From Nitrososphaeria archaeon (GTDB taxonomy: Archaea; Thermoproteota; Nitrososphaeria; Nitrososphaerales; JACAEJ01): a stretch of DNA of 35,387 nucleotides. The stretch spans positions 1 to 35,387 of the forward strand of contig JARVKB010000025.1 of the NCBI GenBank assembly GCA_029775925.1. Direction: 5' to 3'. Shown here piece after piece: positions 280 through 31,079 of the stretch. Under the pieces are notes generated by a model. That model was not told the DNA's origin. It saw only the letters and a program-made list of their open reading frames with translations, and ran no database searches. The position numbers and the translations under genes are program-made. The stretch's first letter is position 1; each line of letters begins with the position of its first letter.

Positions 280-1299
280 TTAAGCCATAACTTTTGTTTT
301 TAATTCTCGCAATTTGTTTAGGAATTTTTCAATTTCTTCCTTATTTTTGAAGAAGCCTTCATATCCGGAGTATTCTGGGTCGGTTTTAGAGAATGCCCAT
401 TCGCTTTTATTTGAGGGCAGGATTTGTTCGGCCTCAGCCTCTGATATATTAAAGTATCTTGCAAACCTCTTTAGGTATACTTGGAATTTTAATCCATCTT
501 GCTGGTTGCTTTGGCCTGGCAGTATGTTAAATATTGTGTTCATTCTTCCATTTTGCCGTCCAATAAAAGTCACTGAACTTAGGGTTGTCCCCCAATCGTC
601 AAACAACTGCTCGAGCTCCTTAACTAAGATGGAATACAGTTCATCAACACCATTATCTTGGGCTATCTTTCTTAACTCCTCCTCTGTTAGATAGTATCTC
701 CTTTTTGTTTTCCGCACTTCTTCAGCGCTTTTTGGAATTAACATAACTCTTGCTAGGAACTCTTGATCGTTATTTCTAAAATAGTTGAATGTTACAGCGT
801 TGATTCGAATTCCATATTCAGAAAGATAGCGGATTACCCTTTCTCCTTGATCGTCTAAATCCGACGCCACTATAAGCATTTCGTGGGACTCATTTAGGAC
901 ATCTGGAAGCTGCTCCTTCCCGAACTTTCTCCCAAAAGCCTCTTCGAAAGTGATTCCCTTCTTTCTAAAGTAATTATTTGCAATATTCACGATTTCCTCA
1001 TAAGACAGGTCGTCCACCCATGATGCATACTCCAGAATTTGGGCTATCACTTCCCGCGGAGCCTTATCCCTCTTTAACTCTACTATGACCAAGTCGCCGT
1101 TTCGCTTGATACATAAAAGATCAATGTATTTTTCAAAAGCCGTCTTTACTTGCCGACCGATAATAAGCAAATCATCAGATATTATTGAAATGTCATTCTC
1201 AAGCCATTCCTCTAAGCGCTCCTCAAAACTGAGTCTATCCCTCGGAATCTCCACCAATTCCCTATCCTTCACTTCCCACAACCGAATTTCCTGAGACAT
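280..1299 (-). CDS. NucS/DUF91-like PD-(D/E)XK nuclease-domain protein
   Basis: 339 residues from an ATG. The N-terminal 100 residues match the nuclease fold of the DUF91/NucS group: after a predicted helix (FEERLEEWLENDI) come IDLLCIKRNGDLVIVELKR and APREVIAQILEYASWV. The likely catalytic residues are D60, E74 and K76, with Q87 on the next helix. The remaining 240 residues are charged and mostly helical and match nothing I recognise; they may bind DNA or a partner. Known NucS cuts mismatched or branched DNA, but the N-terminal DNA-binding half of canonical NucS is absent, so this is a nuclease-domain relative rather than NucS itself. A possible TATA element on the minus strand lies at about 1322-1337. 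The gene stands alone beside accessory DNA. Confidence 0.7.
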   Translation of the reverse strand: MSQEIRLWEVKDRELVEIPRDRLSFEERLEEWLENDISIISDDLLIIGRQVKTAFEKYIDLLCIKRNGDLVIVELKRDKAPREVIAQILEYASWVDDLSYEEIVNIANNYFRKKGITFEEAFGRKFGKEQLPDVLNESHEMLIVASDLDDQGERVIRYLSEYGIRINAVTFNYFRNNDQEFLARVMLIPKSAEEVRKTKRRYYLTEEELRKIAQDNGVDELYSILVKELEQLFDDWGTTLSSVTFIGRQNGRMNTIFNILPGQSNQQDGLKFQVYLKRFARYFNISEAEAEQILPSNKSEWAFSKTDPEYSGYEGFFKNKEEIEKFLNKLRELKTKVMA

Positions 1300-3068: not shown

Positions 3069-3412
3069 TCAAAGATCGATCCTCTTCAAACCACTATACT
3101 CATCAGCCACATCTAACACAAATATAGGATACTGCGCTTCTTGCATCAACGATTTAGTGAACGTTGTCTTTCCTGATCCTGGATTGCCAGTAAGAACAAT
3201 AGGCTTACTATCTTTGAATATAAGTTGCTTGGATGCTGGTGGCATAACTCCTTCTCTATTAGGAAGGTCAATAATGCATTATAACTTCTAAATCCAATCT
3301 TCCTCTTCAATTCCTTCATTCTTACTATGTTACTCCTCGATACTCTATAATTGGTATAGCCTTCTATTGGTGGCTTTGAGATACTTGTGTAACTTTGACT
3401 TAACTCGCTCAA
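3069..3412 (-). pseudogene. Remnant of a P-loop ATPase with an N-terminal helical domain
   Basis: On the minus strand a TTG at 3412 opens a frame encoding about 56 residues ending NALLTFLIEKEL, resembling a small DNA-binding or helical domain. At 3245 a second frame takes over, starting MPPASKQLIFKDSKPIVLTG and running through a Walker A motif (GNPGSGKTT) to VLDVADEYSGLKRIDL, where it stops after 58 residues. The junction looks like a one-base frameshift; an alternative is two genes, with GGAG just before the second ATG. A P-loop domain cannot fold in 58 residues, so the ATPase is truncated. Such ATPases occur in archaeal viruses and plasmids, which suggests a decayed integrated element. Confidence 0.5.
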
Positions 3413-3506: not shown

Positions 3507-4238
3507 ATGACTGAGGAAGATTTTGAAAGTGTTATTGAGAAGTGGATTAAAGAGCTGATCGAGTGGAGATTTCCGTTACGGCTTCGCAGCAGGTATAGGC
3601 TAAAGGGGGATAGCGGTAACTACCATGAAATTGATTTTATAATCGAAGGTGCAGTAGCTCCACCTGAAAACTATAAGGAATTACTAAAATCTGTTGAAGA
3701 AGCTCATAGGCGAGTGGAAGAAAATAGAGAACTTTCAGAAAAAAGTTTAGACGCTCGTTTAGCCCTTATAAAGAGTATAGATGACTTTGTGGCTACAGCT
3801 AGCCGTCTTTTGAATGCTTTTACATATGATGCCAAAATCCTCATCGAAGTCAAGGGCATGGGCTGGGCTGGTGAAAAGCCTACTGAACAAACATATAGAG
3901 AGCATATGTTACGTGCCTATGCCTGTCTTGGAGATTACCGCAATCAAAAGGATAAAAAGAAGTACGTTATAGTTCCGTATAAAAGCATTAGGCAAAGAGC
4001 TTCCAATTATGAGAGCTATTTCAAAAGCATCAACACGACTCTTTTAGACTACAGTGATCCAAAGGAAAGGTCTATTTTGGAGGACGAGATAAAAAGGCTG
4101 AGAGAGGAGTTAATGTCTAAGCTTAGACATTATGATTTAAAAAGCATAGCTTTTAGGGCAACACCATGGCTATTTCCTTATGGAAGCATGAACTTATCAA
4201 ACGCTAGTCGCCCTAGAATTGGGCATTTTCCAAACTGA
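3507..4238 (+). CDS. Restriction-endonuclease-like protein with a coiled-coil insert
   Basis: 243 residues from an ATG. The core pattern is that of PD-(D/E)XK nucleases: a predicted helix (IEKWIKELIEWRF), then YHEIDFIIEG with D43 as the likely metal ligand, and ILIEVKG with E114 and K116. Between them sits a long helical, probably coiled-coil stretch (about residues 50-105). A second helical segment (EDEIKRLREELMSKL) follows the core. This arrangement resembles archaeal proteins related to rRNA-intron-encoded or Holliday-junction-type nucleases, but the exact family is not clear. The last nine or so codons (from PRIGHFPN) lie inside a 36-bp repeat found again at 6694, so the natural C-terminus may have been replaced. 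A TATA-like stretch lies about 35 bases upstream. Confidence 0.55.
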   Translation: MTEEDFESVIEKWIKELIEWRFPLRLRSRYRLKGDSGNYHEIDFIIEGAVAPPENYKELLKSVEEAHRRVEENRELSEKSLDARLALIKSIDDFVATASRLLNAFTYDAKILIEVKGMGWAGEKPTEQTYREHMLRAYACLGDYRNQKDKKKYVIVPYKSIRQRASNYESYFKSINTTLLDYSDPKERSILEDEIKRLREELMSKLRHYDLKSIAFRATPWLFPYGSMNLSNASRPRIGHFPN

Positions 4239-4248
4239 TAGTCTTATA
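4213..4248 (+). repeat. 36-bp direct repeat, left copy
   Basis: The segment starting CTAGAATTGGGCATTTTCC and ending GTCTTATA recurs at 6694-6729 with three differences (33 of 36 identical), 2481 bases away in the same orientation. Flanking bases do not match. The left copy overlaps the 3' end and stop codon of the nuclease gene. The pair brackets the retropepsin operon and two gene remnants. Confidence 0.7.
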
Positions 4249-4351
4249 ATTAAAAGCTGAGCATTAAGTTTAAAGAGCGTATTCATAAAATCGAAGCCAA
4301 AGTATTAGAGGATTTTCATCTACAAAACCAGTCTTAGATGGAAAGTATGCC

Positions 4352-4792
4352 CTAGCGATTTATATCGTAGGATAAAAGAGAAAGAACTTGTTTCGGACCA
4401 TCGAATTCCGCAATCCATTTATCTAAAAACTGTCGCCCTATAAGAAATGGAGGTAGACCAAAACAGGATAACTTCGTAGGGACCGGCGGGCTAAGGCGAT
4501 AGTTAGTTATGCTAGATATCTCAGCAATTTCTGCATCAAATATTGAGGTTAAAACGCGTGTACCGTCGGCTAAAAGTGCGACAGAATCGATGCCTTCAAT
4601 GCCGAGTCGCTCTAAGATTCGAATGTAATTTTTGGATAGTTTTAAACCTCCATTAAAACCCGTATCAACCATGAAATCTTCGGTGAAGTCGTGACCCAAA
4701 CCAGAATTGTCTCTAACAATAAATGTGACCTTTAGAATCGGAGTACTGCTGATGTATGGCCTTTGAAGAACAAGTTTACGGTTTAGAGCCAA
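4352..4792 (-). CDS. Retropepsin-like clan AA aspartic protease, DTGF type
   Basis: 146 residues from an ATG. The active-site motif is DFMVDTGFNGGLKLS (catalytic D43, then T44, G45, F46), followed by a flap-like stretch (LLADGTRVLTSIFDAEI) and the closing FLIGRQFLDKWIAEFDG, all typical of the small bacterial and archaeal clan AA proteases with DTGF. These have one active-site Asp per chain and should act as dimers like retroviral protease; substrates are unknown. Its start overlaps the last 10 bases of the DUF5678-like gene, so translation is probably coupled. It is the last gene of a three-gene minus-strand operon. The family assignment is firm; the role in the cell is not known. Confidence 0.85.
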   Translation of the reverse strand: MALNRKLVLQRPYISSTPILKVTFIVRDNSGLGHDFTEDFMVDTGFNGGLKLSKNYIRILERLGIEGIDSVALLADGTRVLTSIFDAEIAEISSITNYRLSPPVPTKLSCFGLPPFLIGRQFLDKWIAEFDGPKQVLSLLSYDINR

Positions 4793-5262
4793 CCTTCAGT
4801 CGCCTTAGCGCCAACTCTATGTAGGAAGATTTGAGTTCTTGGTAAGTTTAGTTCCCTGATCTTCTTCAGCAGGTCTATGTCACTCTTTGACGAGGCGACT
4901 ATCTTGCCTTCATACGTTATCGCAACAAAGAGACCCTCATAATCTCTTTCTAGAATAGGTTTAAGGCGACTTACTATTTCATCTTGCAATCGTATCTTGT
5001 CCTCTTCTAAACGCATTAAGCCTTTGGTCGTCAAGACTCTTTCTATATTTGAAATTCTGTCAAGAGCCTCCTCCAACTTTCTATGCTCTTCGGCTACAGT
5101 TATACTTAGAGGTATCCTAGTGCCGTACAATATCTCTATACTTGCAGTACCAAGCTCAGATGGTTTAAGGGTGTCAACTGTCTGTCTAGATAATATTCTT
5201 CTGAACAATTCTTCTATCCTTTTTTGCTCAACTGTTTTTTCTTCATTAGTAATCGCTTGCAA
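4783..5262 (-). CDS. DUF5678-like protein with an N-terminal coiled coil
   Basis: 159 residues. The first 100 are charged and helical, with a likely coiled coil (EEHRKLEEALDRISNIERVL). The C-terminal 50 residues (DYEGLFVAITYEGKIVASSK then DIDLLKKIRELNLPRTQIF) match the DUF5678 pattern, a short beta-alpha-beta unit common in archaea and often next to a small aspartic protease. The only plausible start is the TTG at 5262, which directly follows the stop of the upstream gene; a GGGGGTGG stretch just before it can serve as ribosome-binding site. The repeated pairing of DUF5678 with DTGF proteases suggests partner, substrate or inhibitor, but that is inference. Confidence 0.65.
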   Translation of the reverse strand: MQAITNEEKTVEQKRIEELFRRILSRQTVDTLKPSELGTASIEILYGTRIPLSITVAEEHRKLEEALDRISNIERVLTTKGLMRLEEDKIRLQDEIVSRLKPILERDYEGLFVAITYEGKIVASSKSDIDLLKKIRELNLPRTQIFLHRVGAKATEGWL

Positions 5263-6030
5263 CTAGTGACCACCCCCTAAGATTACACTATTATACAAGA
5301 AAGTCCCAATAACGAAAGATATGAAAGTTCTTACGGTTTCACTCCGATTAATTGCTGGTACTTCGGTGAGCGCCTTGAGTACAGATGGGTATTTTTTTAA
5401 GAAACTTTCGTCTTCCGTTAAAGACAAGTATATACTTGCTGGGTCTTCAAGCTTTGGTATAGCTGGCTCTCCTGCTATTCGCTTTGAATGATATACTGCC
5501 ATTGCAAGCCTGTAAATAATTGTGTCTGGATCTTTAGTACCTGACATTATCACATCTTTCGCAACGGCAAATAGATGAGGTTTTGACTTAATTTCTTCCA
5601 AGACGCCACTTGCACGCAGTATTTCTTCTGCTATTGTTAAAGCCTCTTCATTCTCATGACTGGCTTGAGGGATTGGTGACTTTTGTTTTGCTAAGAAATT
5701 CATCATATATTCTCTGGACCTTGAAAACCAGCTTTCTAAAGGAGACATCAGTTTTAACTCACTTAGGATACGAAAAGTGATCATCATATCTTTTGTCCAA
5801 GCCCCAACGATCCCTGACGCTAAATCATAGTAAAGAGCGATTCGATCTTCACCAAATTGATCTACAAGTGATTCATAAAGTTTTGAGCCTACTTCTAAGG
5901 TTAGGATTGGAGGCTTAAGTTTTGTTGTTTGTTTTAGTTGAATGAGACAAAATGGGTATGCAGGACCGTGAGCTGTTTCTAGCAATGTTTGTGAAGGTTT
6001 AGGTCTTATAATTTCAATTCTCTCTCCCAA
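5263..6030 (-). CDS. Unknown helical protein leading the retropepsin operon
   Basis: 255 residues, no family recognised. It opens with beta-like segments (IEIIRPKPSQTLLETAHG, PFCLIQLKQTTKLKPPILTL) and is then mostly helical, with acidic segments (HENEEALTIAEEILRASGVL) and a hydrophobic end (FISFVIGTFLYNSVILGGGH) that could be a membrane helix or a buried one. The start is a TTG supported by a very strong Shine-Dalgarno site (AGGAGGGG at 6037-6044). The stop abuts the start of the DUF5678-like gene, so the three genes form one unit. A conserved partner of the protease is likely; the function is unknown. Confidence 0.6.
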   Translation of the reverse strand: MGERIEIIRPKPSQTLLETAHGPAYPFCLIQLKQTTKLKPPILTLEVGSKLYESLVDQFGEDRIALYYDLASGIVGAWTKDMMITFRILSELKLMSPLESWFSRSREYMMNFLAKQKSPIPQASHENEEALTIAEEILRASGVLEEIKSKPHLFAVAKDVIMSGTKDPDTIIYRLAMAVYHSKRIAGEPAIPKLEDPASIYLSLTEDESFLKKYPSVLKALTEVPAINRSETVRTFISFVIGTFLYNSVILGGGH

Positions 6031-6036
6031 TTCGAA

Positions 6037-6044
6037 CCCCTCCT
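6037..6044 (-). promoter_or_regulatory. Strong Shine-Dalgarno site deciding a TTG start
   Basis: AGGAGGGG on the minus strand lies six bases before the TTG at 6030. It is among the strongest ribosome-binding sites I noticed in the window and fixes the start of the 255-residue gene where no ATG is available. Confidence 0.65.
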
Positions 6045-6076
6045 TTTAAAAAGAATGCCTCTCATTGGCAAGAATA

Positions 6077-6450
6077 CTAATAGAAAAGCAAGTCTTTAAG
6101 GATTACTAATTTTGGCTCTATTGCCCTGAACTTATAAGCCAATGCTTTGATTTCGCAATTTACTGTGAAATTTCTAGCGATACCTATTCTTCAAAGCTTC
6201 CATTAATATAGGTGATGTCGGTAACGTTCATACAGATCTAAGGAATATGTACTTTTGTTTCAGCATTATTTTTGATAGTAATATCAAATTTACATCGCCA
6301 TTTATCGTCCTTTTTTATTGATCCCTTGAACTCCTATAATTTGTATGGTAGAAGTTGGCGCGAGTATAGGTAATATCGCGATAATGGACAAAAGCGTCAG
6401 AGTTACTATCGAAACAACAATCAAAAGTTTGATCTATTCTTCCTCTTCAT
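6077..6450 (-). pseudogene. Decayed gene for a secreted protein
   Basis: On the minus strand the ATG at 6450 starts MKRKNRSNF and stops at once. One added base leads into a clear signal or anchor segment, KLLIVVSIVTLTLLSIIAIL followed by PILAPTSTIQIIGVQG. A second shift continues as KKDDKWRCKFDITIKNNAET and then KVHIP before a TAG; past the stop the frame reads MNVTDITYINGSFEE, and a third frame gives RNFTVNCEIKALAYKFRAIE to the stop at 6077. Together these outline an exported beta-rich protein of about 120 residues with at least two frameshifts and two in-frame stops. It sits inside the right edge of the repeat-bracketed block. Confidence 0.5.
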
Positions 6451-6510
6451 TATCTTCAAGGCACTCTATTCCTCAATAAAGGTTCCTTTTCGGTATCTCA
6501 CCACTAGTAA

Positions 6511-6693
6511 GCACTGTATGGACATCTCATTCCCCAGCAATATCAATTTTTAGTAGACTTATCAAAAGATATTTTCTCATGTCCTTGTTGTCATGGCACT
6601 GGAAGGCATCCATCACAGATGCATAAAGGTAAAATCGAAGAATATGGTTATGGTTGTTCAACTTGTGAGGGAAAGGGAACCCTTAAGGGTTGA
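6511..6693 (+). pseudogene. DnaJ-type zinc-finger fragment without a start
   Basis: The frame opens after a TAA at 6508-6510 and ends at 6691-6693. It encodes 60 residues with two C-x2-C-x-G-x-G motifs, CPCCHGTG and CSTCEGKG, the zinc-binding pattern of the DnaJ cysteine-rich domain and of several small archaeal zinc proteins. There is no ATG, GTG or TTG before the first motif (a CTG at 6514 is the only option), so I read it as a 5'-truncated remnant. It ends exactly where the right copy of the 36-bp repeat begins. Confidence 0.45.
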
Positions 6694-6729
6694 CTAGAAT
6701 TGAGTATTTTCCAAACTGGTAGTCTTATA
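6694..6729 (+). repeat. 36-bp direct repeat, right copy
   Basis: CTAGAATTGAGTATTTTCC through GTCTTATA matches 4213-4248 at 33 of 36 positions in the same orientation. It starts directly after the stop codon of the zinc-finger fragment. The next intact gene on the right begins 110 bases later. Confidence 0.7.
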
Positions 6730-6838: not shown

Positions 6839-7501
6839 ATGTCAATAGAATACTCTGGTCTGTTTCTCTCAATTGAGAGTGGTAAGAAATCCAAAATTCT
6901 AAATGCGCTCTCTAAAACATATGATCTAATAGACGGAGTTATGATAAAAATGCCATTTTGGCTTACTGAGTCTATTAGAGCAATTAAAGAAATTAAAGGT
7001 GTAGTTAAAGAAAAGCGAGTACTGGTCGACCTAAGGCTAGAGGGATCTTCTGCTGAGGATGTTCGATATTTCTCAACCATGATTGGAGATCAAGGTGCTG
7101 ATGGTTTTACGGTGATAGGTTATTATCCAGAAAGCATGATTTGCTCTTACGTGAAGTCTGCAACCTTAAGTGTATTCTCAATTCTAGATGTTGGCTTACC
7201 GAATTATGAGAAACGGTTTCCAGACGATGTGCTTCTTGAGGCTACCAAAGTAGCGAAACGTTGTGGATGTAAAGGAGTCATCATGACAACTATGCGTATT
7301 GAGAGAATAGCTAAAGCCCGCTATATTGTTGGACGTGATCTTGAAATCTTAGCTTCACTTGACGGAGAAGCAAAGTCAGGTGAAGGAGTTCTAAGTGGTG
7401 CAGATTTTGAGATTATTCCACAAAGGTTATGGTGTACTGATAAGCCTAGAGAGGCTGTTCAAGCGATAGCTGAATCAATTCTAAAAAAGAAAAGAGAATA
7501 G
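6839..7501 (+). CDS. OMP-decarboxylase-fold protein with altered active site
   Basis: 220 residues, ATG start. The layout follows orotidine-5'-phosphate decarboxylase: an early strand (GLFLSIES), a lysine strand (IDGVMIKMPF, K37), the segment RVLVDLRLEGS at the catalytic position, GADGFTVIGYYPES, and a C-terminal GADFEIIPQRLW. The canonical catalytic D-x-K-x-x-D reads D-x-R-x-x-G here (D64 kept, Lys replaced by R66, second Asp lost), and the phosphate-binding G-R-S near the end is replaced by P-Q-R. It is therefore unlikely to be an ordinary decarboxylase. It faces a second OMP-decarboxylase-like gene 45 bases away. The fold is well supported; the function is unknown. Confidence 0.65.
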   Translation: MSIEYSGLFLSIESGKKSKILNALSKTYDLIDGVMIKMPFWLTESIRAIKEIKGVVKEKRVLVDLRLEGSSAEDVRYFSTMIGDQGADGFTVIGYYPESMICSYVKSATLSVFSILDVGLPNYEKRFPDDVLLEATKVAKRCGCKGVIMTTMRIERIAKARYIVGRDLEILASLDGEAKSGEGVLSGADFEIIPQRLWCTDKPREAVQAIAESILKKKRE

Positions 7502-7545: not shown

Positions 7546-8268
7546 CTAGGTATCACGGGCTAACGCCGTGACTCTATATTGAGCAACCTTTGAACTTTCT
7601 TCTAGCCTGACCTTTAGTTGAGAGCATAATATAGATGCGACATGTCTGGGATCTTCAGCCATATAGATAGAACGCCCGATGATTTCAAAGTTAGCTCCCT
7701 CTAAGATGGCATCGCCTAACTTGCCTCCTTGTGCACCTACACCTGGGCAGATTATGAGCATATCATTACCAACAATGTTTCTGTACAATCCTACCCTATT
7801 AGGTCTAGTTGCTGGTGCGACTATACCACGAGCATTCAGTTCTTTAGCCATCTTGGCTATTTTTATTCCTATTTTTTGCATGAAGTCTAGGGCGCCTGGG
7901 TGCGACATTTCGGTAATCACAAATACATAAGCATCACGTTGATTAGCAACTTTAATGCATTCCTTAACGACATCACGACCCACGAATCCATGCACAGTAA
8001 CGCCGTCCGCACCAGCATCTATGATTTCCTGTATCATTTCTTTGCTTATCTCAGGGATATCAGCTGTCTTAAAACAAGTCAGAATTGGTACATTAACAGT
8101 CTCTCTTAGCTTACTTATTGCTCTAAGACCATTCCGTAGTACAAAGAGTTGAGAAACTTTTATTGCATCGACGTAGCCTTGCACTATCTTAGCTATCTCT
8201 AAAGCTTTGTCTAGATCTTTAATGTCAAGAGCGTGAATTATTCTATTATTTTCTATTAATCTCCTCAT
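7546..8268 (-). CDS. pyrF: Orotidine-5'-phosphate decarboxylase-like protein
   Basis: 240 residues, ATG start. The family landmarks are clear: IHALDIKDLDKALEIAK (D15), DAIKVSQLFVLRNG (K37), TCFKTADIPEI, GADGVTVHGF, TEMSHPGA, ATRPNR, PGVGAQGG and IIGRSIYMAEDP. The enzyme normally converts OMP to UMP in pyrimidine synthesis. The catalytic motif is D-F-K-x-A-D in archaeal enzymes but reads C65-F-K67-T-A-D70 here, so the first aspartate, thought to destabilise the substrate carboxylate, is a cysteine. The Thr of the usual IPET is Ile. It may be the cell's PyrF with an odd active site, or a repurposed paralog. No other pyrimidine gene is nearby. Confidence 0.75.
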   Translation of the reverse strand: MRRLIENNRIIHALDIKDLDKALEIAKIVQGYVDAIKVSQLFVLRNGLRAISKLRETVNVPILTCFKTADIPEISKEMIQEIIDAGADGVTVHGFVGRDVVKECIKVANQRDAYVFVITEMSHPGALDFMQKIGIKIAKMAKELNARGIVAPATRPNRVGLYRNIVGNDMLIICPGVGAQGGKLGDAILEGANFEIIGRSIYMAEDPRHVASILCSQLKVRLEESSKVAQYRVTALARDT

Positions 8269-24611: not shown

Positions 24612-25025
24612 ATGGCATTAGGCAAAGGAGCGAAGCTATGGTATTATAATGGAGAAGATTAAAGGAATAAGAAAGTTATATCAAAGAGGTAAGGACAAAG
24701 TAGAAACTATAGAGCAAAGATGAACTCATGGAGCTATTATGAGCTTCAAAGACAAATCGAATATAAGGCAAGATGGGAAGGATTGAAGGTAATATATGTG
24801 GATGCCAGAGGGACATCAAGCCTATGTGCGGCATGTGGGTCAAAGTTAAACTCGAATAGCACAAATAGGCAACTTTGGTGTCCAAAGTGTAAAATTTTGA
24901 TAGATAGAGACGTGAATGCGGCTAGAAATATTCTAGCTAGAGGGCTTGGTTCAGCCCTGACGCCTCAGCCATGTGAAGCGATGGTACAGGAATGGCGTAA
25001 GCCTAATCCTGAAAGTCGATGGTGA
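24612..25025 (+). pseudogene. TnpB C-terminal remnant (IS200/IS605)
   Basis: Three frames join to one protein: KGAKLWYYNGE, then KIKGIRKLYQRG, then RNYRAKMNSWSYYELQRQIE and EYKARWEGLKVIYVDARGTS. The zinc finger is complete (SLCAACGSK and LWCPKCK), followed by IDRDVNAARNILARG with the last RuvC aspartate. TnpB is the RNA-guided nuclease of these elements. The N-terminal two thirds and the first RuvC residues are missing, and at least two frameshifts occur, so it is dead. An ATG at 24720 opens the longest intact piece (101 residues). No TnpA is present. Confidence 0.8.
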
Positions 25026-29513: not shown

Positions 29514-29702
29514 ATGTCTACTGGTAGCAAGTACACTAAGGGTCAGACATGGGGAGCATTGAAGAAGGCTTGGAAAGCTTACAAGATCGCTAAAGTCCAA
29601 GGCGACAAAGAGAAGATGAAAGAATACGCCATGAGAATTAGAACTCTTCAAGAAGAGCTCGGTGTAACAAAAGCAAAATTCCCAGATTTAGGGCTTACTT
29701 AG
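29514..29702 (+). CDS. Small lysine-rich protein, likely highly expressed
   Basis: 62 residues: KYTKGQTWGALKKAWKAYKI, then a charged helix (KEKMKEYAMRIRTLQEELGV) and a short hydrophobic end. I believe similar small proteins occur in other archaea, but no function is known to me. A near-perfect Shine-Dalgarno GAGGTGG lies eight bases before the ATG, and the codons use more AAG, ATC, TAC and GGC than the neighbouring genes, a sign of high expression. The basic, helical make-up would suit a nucleic-acid or ribosome partner; this is inference. The T-rich run after the stop may end transcription. Confidence 0.6.
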   Translation: MSTGSKYTKGQTWGALKKAWKAYKIAKVQGDKEKMKEYAMRIRTLQEELGVTKAKFPDLGLT

Positions 29703-31079
29703 CCCACATCTTTTTATTTTTTCTATGCTATCTTTTGCTATTGATGAGTATTTATCTATTAATTCATCTAATTTATTAGCATCTTTTGATTCTCCAAATA
29801 CTCTTATCAAAGGTTCTGTTCCACTAGGTCTCAATAATACCCAAGTGTTATCATCAGTCCATACCTTCACTCCATCTATCTTCTCTATTCTTCCAATTGA
29901 TTTTCTTTCTATCTCTTCCATGACTAACTTCTTAATCTCATTAGGACAATCAAACTTTGCCTTTCTTTGATGAAACTTAGGAAGAGCATCCAGTATTTCG
30001 GATAATGGTTTATTTATGCTCGATAACGCTTCTAATAGCAATACCGATGCTATCAATCCATCTCTCGTTTGAATATGAGGTGCATAAAAGAGGCCACCAT
30101 TCTCCTCTAATCCTAATAGAGCATTATTATCTATCATCGCTCTCGATACATCAACACTACCTACTCTCGTCCTTAAAACCTTAGAATGGTATTTTTCAGC
30201 AATAAAATCTATTATTTGTGATGTGCTAACAGTAGTTATTACCAATGCTCCTGGATTTTTTGATAATACATAATCTATCAATAAAGCTCCAGTCCTATCT
30301 CCCCAATGGATAACTCCTTTCTCATCACAGAATATTGCTCTATCACCATCGCCATCGTAAGCGATACCAACATCAGCATTGAAAGATTTGACAGCATCCG
30401 AAAGTCCAGACAAATTTGATGGTGTTGGTTCAGCTCCTCTTCCTGGAAATTCTCCATCTACATGCCCGTTTATCGTTAAGACTTTACAGTTAAGGCTTGA
30501 TAGAGCATAGGGAGCAGCAATAGCCATTACTCCATTGCCAGGATCCAATACTACTCTAAACCCTCTTTTCTTTATAGCATTAATATCGACATGGCTTAAT
30601 ACACTTTTTATGTAGTTTTGAATGACTGAACATTCTTGATTGCAATTTCCAACATTCTTCCAATCTGCTTTTCTATATGATTTATCAAAGTATATTCTCT
30701 CAATTTTAGCCTCATCTTCACGAGATATTTCTACACCATCCCTCCCTACAACTTTTATTCCATTGTATTGAGGAGGATTGTGAGATGCTGTTATCATCAC
30801 TCCTCCTTTATAACCTAATTTCTTTACTGCGCATTGTAAAGCAGGAGTTGGTGTGAGATTAGCTTCCATAACATCCAAACCTGAAGCCATGATTCCTGCA
30901 GATACTAATTTTGATATTAAAGGGCTTGATAATCTACCGTCGTAGCCTATGAGAATTGGACCCTGATCAAAATAAGTCCCTATCGATTGTGAAATCTCGA
31001 TTATAAAATCGGGCATTAAATCCTTTCCTAATATCCCTCTTATTCCATTCGTTCCGAAGAATTTTCTCTCAACGATCAT
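29688..31079 (-). CDS. glmM: Phosphoglucosamine/phosphomannomutase, archaeal type
   Basis: 463 residues, ATG start. All four loops are canonical: FGTNGIRG at the start, TASHNPPQYNG with S99, YDGDGDRAIF for metal, LEENGGLFY for sugar recognition, and RPSGTEPLIRVFGES for the phosphate. The enzyme interconverts hexose-6-phosphates and hexose-1-phosphates on the way to UDP-GlcNAc or GDP-mannose; in archaea one enzyme may do both, so the symbol is tentative. It is convergent with the small protein gene, overlapping by 15 bases. A shorter, altered paralog lies at 27193. Confidence 0.85.
   Translation of the reverse strand: MIVERKFFGTNGIRGILGKDLMPDFIIEISQSIGTYFDQGPILIGYDGRLSSPLISKLVSAGIMASGLDVMEANLTPTPALQCAVKKLGYKGGVMITASHNPPQYNGIKVVGRDGVEISREDEAKIERIYFDKSYRKADWKNVGNCNQECSVIQNYIKSVLSHVDINAIKKRGFRVVLDPGNGVMAIAAPYALSSLNCKVLTINGHVDGEFPGRGAEPTPSNLSGLSDAVKSFNADVGIAYDGDGDRAIFCDEKGVIHWGDRTGALLIDYVLSKNPGALVITTVSTSQIIDFIAEKYHSKVLRTRVGSVDVSRAMIDNNALLGLEENGGLFYAPHIQTRDGLIASVLLLEALSSINKPLSEILDALPKFHQRKAKFDCPNEIKKLVMEEIERKSIGRIEKIDGVKVWTDDNTWVLLRPSGTEPLIRVFGESKDANKLDELIDKYSSIAKDSIEKIKRCGLSKP
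29710..29721 (+). terminator. T-rich stretch after the small gene
   Basis: TTTTTATTTTTT shortly after the stop of the 62-residue gene. Archaeal RNA polymerase stops at such T tracts on the non-template strand. It lies inside the 3' end of the convergent mutase gene, as an overlapping convergent pair would require. Confidence 0.4.

What the first reader, a model, noticed from the sequence alone, without database searches (positions are those of the whole stretch)
4213..6729. Repeat-bracketed cassette carrying a three-gene retropepsin operon
Seen: a 36-bp direct repeat (33/36) brackets 2.4 kb holding a tightly packed minus-strand operon of an unknown 255-residue protein, a DUF5678-like protein and a DTGF aspartic protease, with a stop next to a start and a 10-base overlap. 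Known: DTGF clan AA proteases are small, dimeric and uncharacterised in archaea. Inference: protease plus DUF5678 partner plus a third component could be a proteolysis-based stress or defence module that moves as a cassette. This is the best candidate in the window for an undescribed system.
Basis: partly seen in the sequence, partly recalled or inferred. Interest (0 to 1): 0.72.

Follow-up and report, generated by a model that had tools for sequence, protein, structure and literature searches.

The report
Toxin-antitoxin-like operon with aspartic protease
A small accessory gene cluster in an archaeon puts a retrovirus-like protease in the place where a related cluster carries an RNA-cutting toxin, which suggests a toxin-antitoxin-style switch that works by cutting proteins; this is inferred from gene order and has not been tested.

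Summary
In detail: a real 33/36 direct repeat and a tight minus-strand operon of a 255-aa protein, a DUF5678-like protein and an apparently intact DTGF (clan AA) protease. The contig is native to a Nitrososphaerales archaeon, but this end of it is accessory.

The three genes are not a conserved set. Two things are. (1) A DUF5678-like protein directly upstream of, and usually overlapping, a clan AA protease is a widespread archaeal pair; the longer partners begin like ribbon-helix-helix antitoxins (weak matches). (2) The 255-aa family is very rare (3 genomes found). Each time it is the first gene of a compact three-gene operon, but the third gene differs: the protease here, a RelE-family toxin in G009, and an unassigned 123-aa protein in Nitrosocosmicus.

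Best reading: a toxin-antitoxin-like module with the protease as effector, the DUF5678 protein as its docking or holding partner, and the 255-aa protein as a third component shared with a RelE operon. The nearest catalogued proteases sit in type III-G CRISPR operons.

The repeats have no demonstrated role in mobility. The fold of the 255-aa protein, toxicity and protease targets are unknown. New variant of a known kind; function inferred.

The parts
4213..4248 (+). left copy of 36-bp direct repeat; encodes the last eight residues and stop of ORF 3507-4238
6694..6729 (+). right copy of 36-bp direct repeat (33/36), directly after the stop of a zinc-finger ORF remnant
5263..6030 (-). gene 1: 255-aa protein, no known family, Shine-Dalgarno AAAAGGAGGGG; relatives in G063 (33% identity) and G009 (split in two)
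4783..5262 (-). gene 2: 159-aa protein, poorly predicted N-terminal part, long helix, C-terminal DUF5678-like beta-beta-alpha-beta domain and ...EGWL tail
4352..4792 (-). gene 3: 146-aa clan AA (retropepsin-like) aspartic protease, VDTGF and LIGRQFL motifs, overlaps gene 2 by 10 bases
6031..6693 (.). stretch without a long ORF; ends in a relic of a CxxCxGxG zinc-finger ORF

Best explanation
A toxin-antitoxin-like three-component module whose effector is a small, probably dimeric aspartic protease. The DUF5678-like protein (gene 2) occupies the antitoxin position. Its C-terminal domain and short tail bind the protease and keep it inactive or restrict what it cuts; in many archaeal relatives the same kind of domain is carried on a protein that begins like a ribbon-helix-helix DNA-binding antitoxin. 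The 255-aa protein (gene 1) is a third component, a sensor or dedicated chaperone acting on gene 2, and the same family also heads an operon carrying a RelE-type RNase toxin. On a stress or virus signal, gene 1 or gene 2 is lost or changes shape and the protease cuts host or invader proteins. Shown: gene order, overlaps, the recurring DUF5678-protease pairing, exchange of the third gene behind the 255-aa family, and accessory distribution. Inferred: binding, inhibition, toxicity, trigger and targets.
For: 255-aa relatives, always first gene: window (DUF5678 + protease); G063 (207 aa, 1-base overlap, then 123 aa, 4-base overlap); G009 (108 aa, then an 89-aa protein matching ParE-like_toxin 6e-5 and RelE_StbE 6e-4). 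In G032 the same kind of DUF5678-like protein (40% identity) and protease (33%), overlapping by 4 bases, follow a different 214-aa gene by 6 bases. Two independent family searches place DUF5678 directly upstream of the protease in G330, G344, G355, G291 and G244. Of 30 loci fetched by PF18929 alone, at least 12 have a clan AA protease directly downstream. Partner N-termini in L067 and L086 resemble the FitA-like RHH antitoxin domain (5e-3 and 1e-3, below cut-off). A profile built without the window's protein finds it at 3e-5, above all 200 shuffles. Defence link: proteases from RHH-type pairs match PADLOC PEPT_D, 'aspartyl protease, in the type III operon in Sulfolobales', at 1e-8 to 1e-4; PEPT_D proteins lie beside type III-G Cas7/Cas10 (G221) and CARF7 proteins (G298, G293). 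Accessory: absent from other genomes of the genus and family; the G032 operon lies by terminase and ParB-like genes, and the G063 operon has a weak integrase match about 4.5 kb away.
Against: No toxicity, binding or expression data. The 255-aa family has only three members, so 'exchangeable effector' rests on three loci, and only one third gene (RelE) is a recognised toxin; the 123-aa G063 protein matches nothing. The RHH matches are below Pfam cut-offs, and the window's own gene 2 shows no RHH domain. The second genes of G009 and G063 are not similar to the DUF5678 domain. The window's protease does not match PADLOC. Many clan AA proteases sit without a DUF5678 neighbour and several DUF5678 proteins without a protease. 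The 255-aa model is low confidence and matches no known fold.
Confidence: 0.42

Rival explanations
1. Regulated proteolysis without toxicity: the protease cuts its own DUF5678 partner (or gene 1), as ImmA-type proteases cut their repressor, or as CRISPR-Lon cuts CRISPR-T, and this releases a bound DNA-binding protein or other factor. The partner is substrate rather than inhibitor.
For: Partners often look like DNA-binding proteins. Precedents: COG2856 proteases with Xre repressors linked to RelE/PIN toxins (PMC2701414) and the Lon-SAVED/CRISPR-T pair (PMC9704534). Tail sequences encoded next to the protease gene are recurrent and aromatic in the long partners.
Against: The window's gene 2 has no recognisable DNA-binding domain, and no separate toxin is encoded in the operon.
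Confidence: 0.3
2. Only the DUF5678-protease pair is functional as a unit; the 255-aa gene is an independent accessory gene that happens to be first in operons at toxin-antitoxin-rich sites.
For: The pair is common without the 255-aa gene. In G032 the first gene is unrelated to the 255-aa protein (alignment score below its shuffled mean).
Against: In all three occurrences the 255-aa gene is tightly packed ahead of two small genes, with abutting or overlapping junctions in the window and G063.
Confidence: 0.15
3. Ordinary protein quality-control or maturation protease, unrelated to conflict or stress switching.
For: TIGR03698-type proteases are common in Thermoproteota (104 of 250 genomes) and many stand alone.
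Against: Patchy presence, strong divergence, overlapping two-gene organisation and neighbours of relatives such as terminase, CARF and type III-G genes.
Confidence: 0.13

Closest known systems
PADLOC PEPT_D: aspartyl protease of Sulfolobales type III CRISPR operons
   Same: Small clan AA DTGF protease encoded directly after another, overlapping gene; proteases of DUF5678 pairs match its profile at 1e-8 to 1e-4.
   Different: The window has no CRISPR or CARF neighbour recognised, its protease does not match PEPT_D, and the CARF and Cas7 tails are not significantly DUF5678-like.
COG2856 (ImmA-like) Zn protease with Xre repressor, proposed as TA-type systems (Makarova 2009, PMC2701414)
   Same: Protease in a two-gene unit with a DNA-binding-type partner, sometimes linked to RelE/PIN toxins.
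   Different: Metalloprotease (HEXXH), different partner fold, often fused.
Tripartite toxin-antitoxin-chaperone systems with a SecB-like chaperone (e.g. CmdTAC, PMC11618068)
   Same: Three-component layout: toxin, antitoxin and a dedicated third protein.
   Different: The 255-aa protein shows no SecB or other fold match, and the TAC toxins known to me are RNases or ADP-ribosyltransferases, not proteases.
Type II TA systems of RelE/ParE family
   Same: The G009 relative carries a RelE-family toxin as third gene behind the 255-aa family.
   Different: The window has an aspartic protease in that place.

Membership tests
Clan AA DTGF aspartic protease (TIGR03698) | profile score above curated cut-off | tested here: not met
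   21.9 bits against 57.35, E=1.7e-4; distant relative, not a member by the curated rule
Clan AA retropepsin-like fold | D-T/S-G catalytic motif and distal hydrophobic-hydrophobic-Gly motif | tested here: met
   VDTGF and LIGRQFL in sequence, conserved in G032
DUF5678 (PF18929) | profile score above gathering cut-off | tested here: not met
   20.2 bits against 23.2, E=5.4e-4; an own profile of protease-linked partners gives 3.2e-5
DUF5678-protease gene pair | DUF5678-like C-terminal domain encoded directly upstream of, and usually overlapping, a clan AA protease | tested here: met
PADLOC PEPT_D | profile match and type III CRISPR context | tested here: not met
   no match at E<=1; no CRISPR gene recognised next to the operon
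Type II toxin-antitoxin | toxin and antitoxin encoded in an overlapping small operon | tested here: inconclusive
   layout met; no recognised toxin or antitoxin family in the window, RelE in the G009 relative
Type II toxin-antitoxin | effector toxic alone, neutralised by partner | not testable with these tools
   needs an expression experiment
Toxin-antitoxin-chaperone (SecB-like) | SecB-like third protein | tested here: not met
   no SecB match by profile or in the fold search listing, with a low-confidence model

The most novel reading that the evidence does not exclude
A previously undescribed archaeal family (the 255-aa protein) is a control component that works with interchangeable effectors, an RNase toxin in one lineage and an aspartic protease in another, making this a toxin-antitoxin-type system that acts by proteolysis, with DUF5678 as the protease-binding antitoxin domain.
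Probability: 0.28. Interest if true: 0.78.

Novelty: new variant of a known kind. Interest (0 to 1): 0.55.

Why it matters
DUF5678 has essentially no literature (one paper naming it in the library searched), and I know of no assigned role for small archaeal retropepsin-like proteases. The recurring overlapping pair gives both a testable partnership. The shift from RelE to protease behind the same first gene would, if confirmed, add protein cleavage by an aspartic protease to the effector repertoire of toxin-antitoxin-like systems, and would connect the aspartyl protease of type III-G CRISPR operons with stand-alone modules.

Tried and rejected
Contamination of the bin: rejected. The phosphoglucomutase-like gene at 29688-31079 is 79% identical to both same-genus genomes, and the right end of the contig shows conserved genes.

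Repeats as att sites or transposon ends: no tRNA, no recombinase between them, no other copies, no stable RNA fold, no Rfam match.

Empty-site comparison: not possible. The direct neighbours 3507-4238 and 6839-7501 are absent from the relatives, and the OMP decarboxylase 7546-8268 has only distant (about 30%) matches there.

Wider spread of the 255-aa family: none in IMG/VR, plasmids or 398 phylum-wide genomes (own excepted). The genome-contig scans found only the Nitrosocosmicus locus.

Structure: 255-aa model pLDDT 63, no Foldseek match; gene 2 model confident only in the long helix and DUF5678-like part (pLDDT about 91-94), no Foldseek match.

DUF5678-like tails on CARF and Cas7 proteins: looked alike by eye, but the profile score is weak for CARF (4-8 of 200 shuffles as good) and absent for Cas7 (57 of 200); not claimed.

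Second genes of G009/G063 as DUF5678 relatives: not supported. HEPN identity of the 123-aa G063 protein: suspected by eye, no profile or PDB match; not claimed.

Trp-containing C-terminal tail as a rule for protease-linked partners: 12 of 29 linked against 0 of 19 unlinked, but confined to the long partners and biased by locus choice.
Full report
OBSERVATION. The 36-bp direct repeat at 4213-4248 and 6694-6729 is real: 33 of 36 positions agree, no second match is expected by chance, and the 23-base core occurs nowhere else in the genome at up to 3 mismatches. Between the copies lie 2445 bp. The minus-strand genes are as described: 255 aa (5263-6030), 159 aa (4783-5262, start abutting the previous stop) and 146 aa (4352-4792, 10-base overlap). 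Gene 1 has a strong Shine-Dalgarno sequence (AAAAGGAGGGG) six bases before its TTG start.

FAMILIES. Gene 2 matches DUF5678 just below the Pfam cut-off (5.4e-4). Gene 3 matches clan AA DTGF well below the NCBIfam cut-off (1.7e-4), but keeps VDTGF and LIGRQFL, so it is probably an active, dimeric retropepsin-like enzyme (inference from sequence). Gene 1 matches no library.

HOST. The window is contig C20 of a 1.4-Mb genome. A core gene at 29688-31079 is 79% identical to the two same-genus genomes, and several genes at the right end are conserved there, so the contig is native. Genes 1 and 3, ORF 3507-4238 and 6839-7501 are missing from the six other genomes of the family searched; the left end of the contig is accessory.

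GENE 1 AND ITS PARTNERS. Among 151 relatives, gene 1 has homologues only in G063 (E 3.5e-37, 33%) and G009 (two adjacent ORFs, together full length). A phylum-wide draw of 398 genomes found only the window's own copy. In G063 it is followed by a 207-aa gene (1-base overlap) and a 123-aa gene (4-base overlap), neither with a family match. In G009 it is followed by a 108-aa gene and an 89-aa protein of the RelE/ParE family (ParE-like_toxin 6.1e-5; RelE_StbE 6.2e-4). The first gene is therefore kept while the third gene changes. The second genes of G063 and G009 are not detectably related to DUF5678.

GENES 2 AND 3 AS A PAIR. In G032 a DUF5678-like gene (40%) and protease (33%) overlap by 4 bases and follow an unrelated 214-aa gene by 6 bases. 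That operon lies close to terminase and ParB-like genes, so it is in or near a provirus-like region. Across 250 phylum genomes, 104 have a TIGR03698 match and 38 a DUF5678 match; the two lists give directly adjacent pairs in G330, G344, G355, G291 and G244, DUF5678 always upstream on the same strand. Of 30 loci fetched by the DUF5678 family alone, 11 have a protease directly downstream by profile, one more (L072) is seen, and three more (L056, L069, L070) show D-T/S-G by eye. Junctions are mostly overlaps of 4-49 bases; a few abut or leave short gaps. The loci were partly chosen for linkage, so only the, 36 lists and the count are free of that bias. The longer partners start with a segment resembling FitA-like ribbon-helix-helix antitoxins (weak). 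A profile from those partners finds the window's gene 2 at 3.2e-5 and above all 200 shuffles.

DEFENCE CONTEXT. Proteases from these pairs match PADLOC PEPT_D at 1e-8 to 1e-4. PEPT_D itself lies in a type III-G operon in G221 (Cas10g 1e-254, Cas7_IIIg 2e-54) and behind a CARF7 protein in G298 and G293. This shows that related proteases are attached to CRISPR sensing genes. It does not show that the window's protease is; its own sequence does not match PEPT_D. The apparent DUF5678-like tails of the CARF and Cas7 proteins are not statistically supported.

STRUCTURE. The gene 2 model shows a long helix followed by a confident beta-beta-alpha-beta C-terminal domain (pLDDT about 91-94). The gene 1 model is poor overall (pLDDT 63), with a mixed alpha/beta N-terminal part and a helical C-terminal part. 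Neither matches a solved fold.

MECHANISM. I favour a toxin-antitoxin-like module: gene 3 as effector, gene 2 as docking or inhibitory partner, gene 1 as a third component shared with a RelE operon. The gene order, the recurring pair and the change of third gene are shown. Binding, inhibition, toxicity and trigger are inferred. The main rival is regulated proteolysis in which gene 2 is the substrate, as proposed for COG2856/Xre (PMC2701414) and described for Lon-SAVED/CRISPR-T (PMC9704534).

REPEATS. No role found. They flank the operon and a 663-bp stretch without long ORFs; there is no recombinase, no tRNA, no further copy, and no similar bracket around the relatives in G063 and G009. 'Cassette' is a description, not a demonstrated mobile unit.

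LITERATURE. The library holds one paper naming DUF5678, incidental by its title, none with 'clan AA' and toxin-antitoxin, and none with CARF plus aspartic protease and type III CRISPR. The library omits most subscription papers, so absence there is weak evidence.

Noticed in passing
window 280-1299 (-): Protein matching PADLOC PDC-S11 (phage defence candidate, 2.3e-69) with a NucS_C-type nuclease domain; another accessory defence-type gene at the same contig end.
   Followed up: no
window 3507-4238 (+): 243-aa protein with a PD-(D/E)XK-like pattern (EIDFII ... ILIEVKG) by eye; no family match above cut-off; its C-terminus runs into the left repeat.
   Followed up: partly
window 3069-3412 (-): Adjacent short ORFs that look like pieces of one broken gene, one with a P-loop (TGNPGSGKTTF).
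   Followed up: no
window 6839-7501 (+) and 7546-8268 (-): Two convergent OMP decarboxylase-like genes; the first is divergent (E 6e-4 to Pfam) and absent from the family, and a third copy lies on contig C23 of the same genome.
   Followed up: partly
window 6541-6693 (+): Relic of a small CxxCxGxG (DnaJ-type) zinc-finger ORF ending directly before the right repeat.
   Followed up: no
window 24720-25025 (+): ORF resembling the C-terminal zinc ribbon of a TnpB/IS605-type protein, by eye.
   Followed up: no
L078 10732-12007 (G298) and L079 9644-10925 (G293): CARF7 (Cas_APE2256) protein directly upstream of a PEPT_D-type aspartic protease, overlapping; a possible cyclic-oligoadenylate-controlled protease pair.
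   Followed up: partly
L080 8156-14082 (G221): Type III-G CRISPR operon with the aspartic protease between two Cas7-like genes, overlapping both.
   Followed up: partly
L005 1157-1881 (G009): The 255-aa relative is split into two ORFs with a 4-base overlap, at the boundary between its alpha/beta and helical halves; a true split gene or a frameshift.
   Followed up: no
L004 2855-3226 (G063): 123-aa protein in the third-gene position, HEPN-like by eye only; no profile match.
   Followed up: partly
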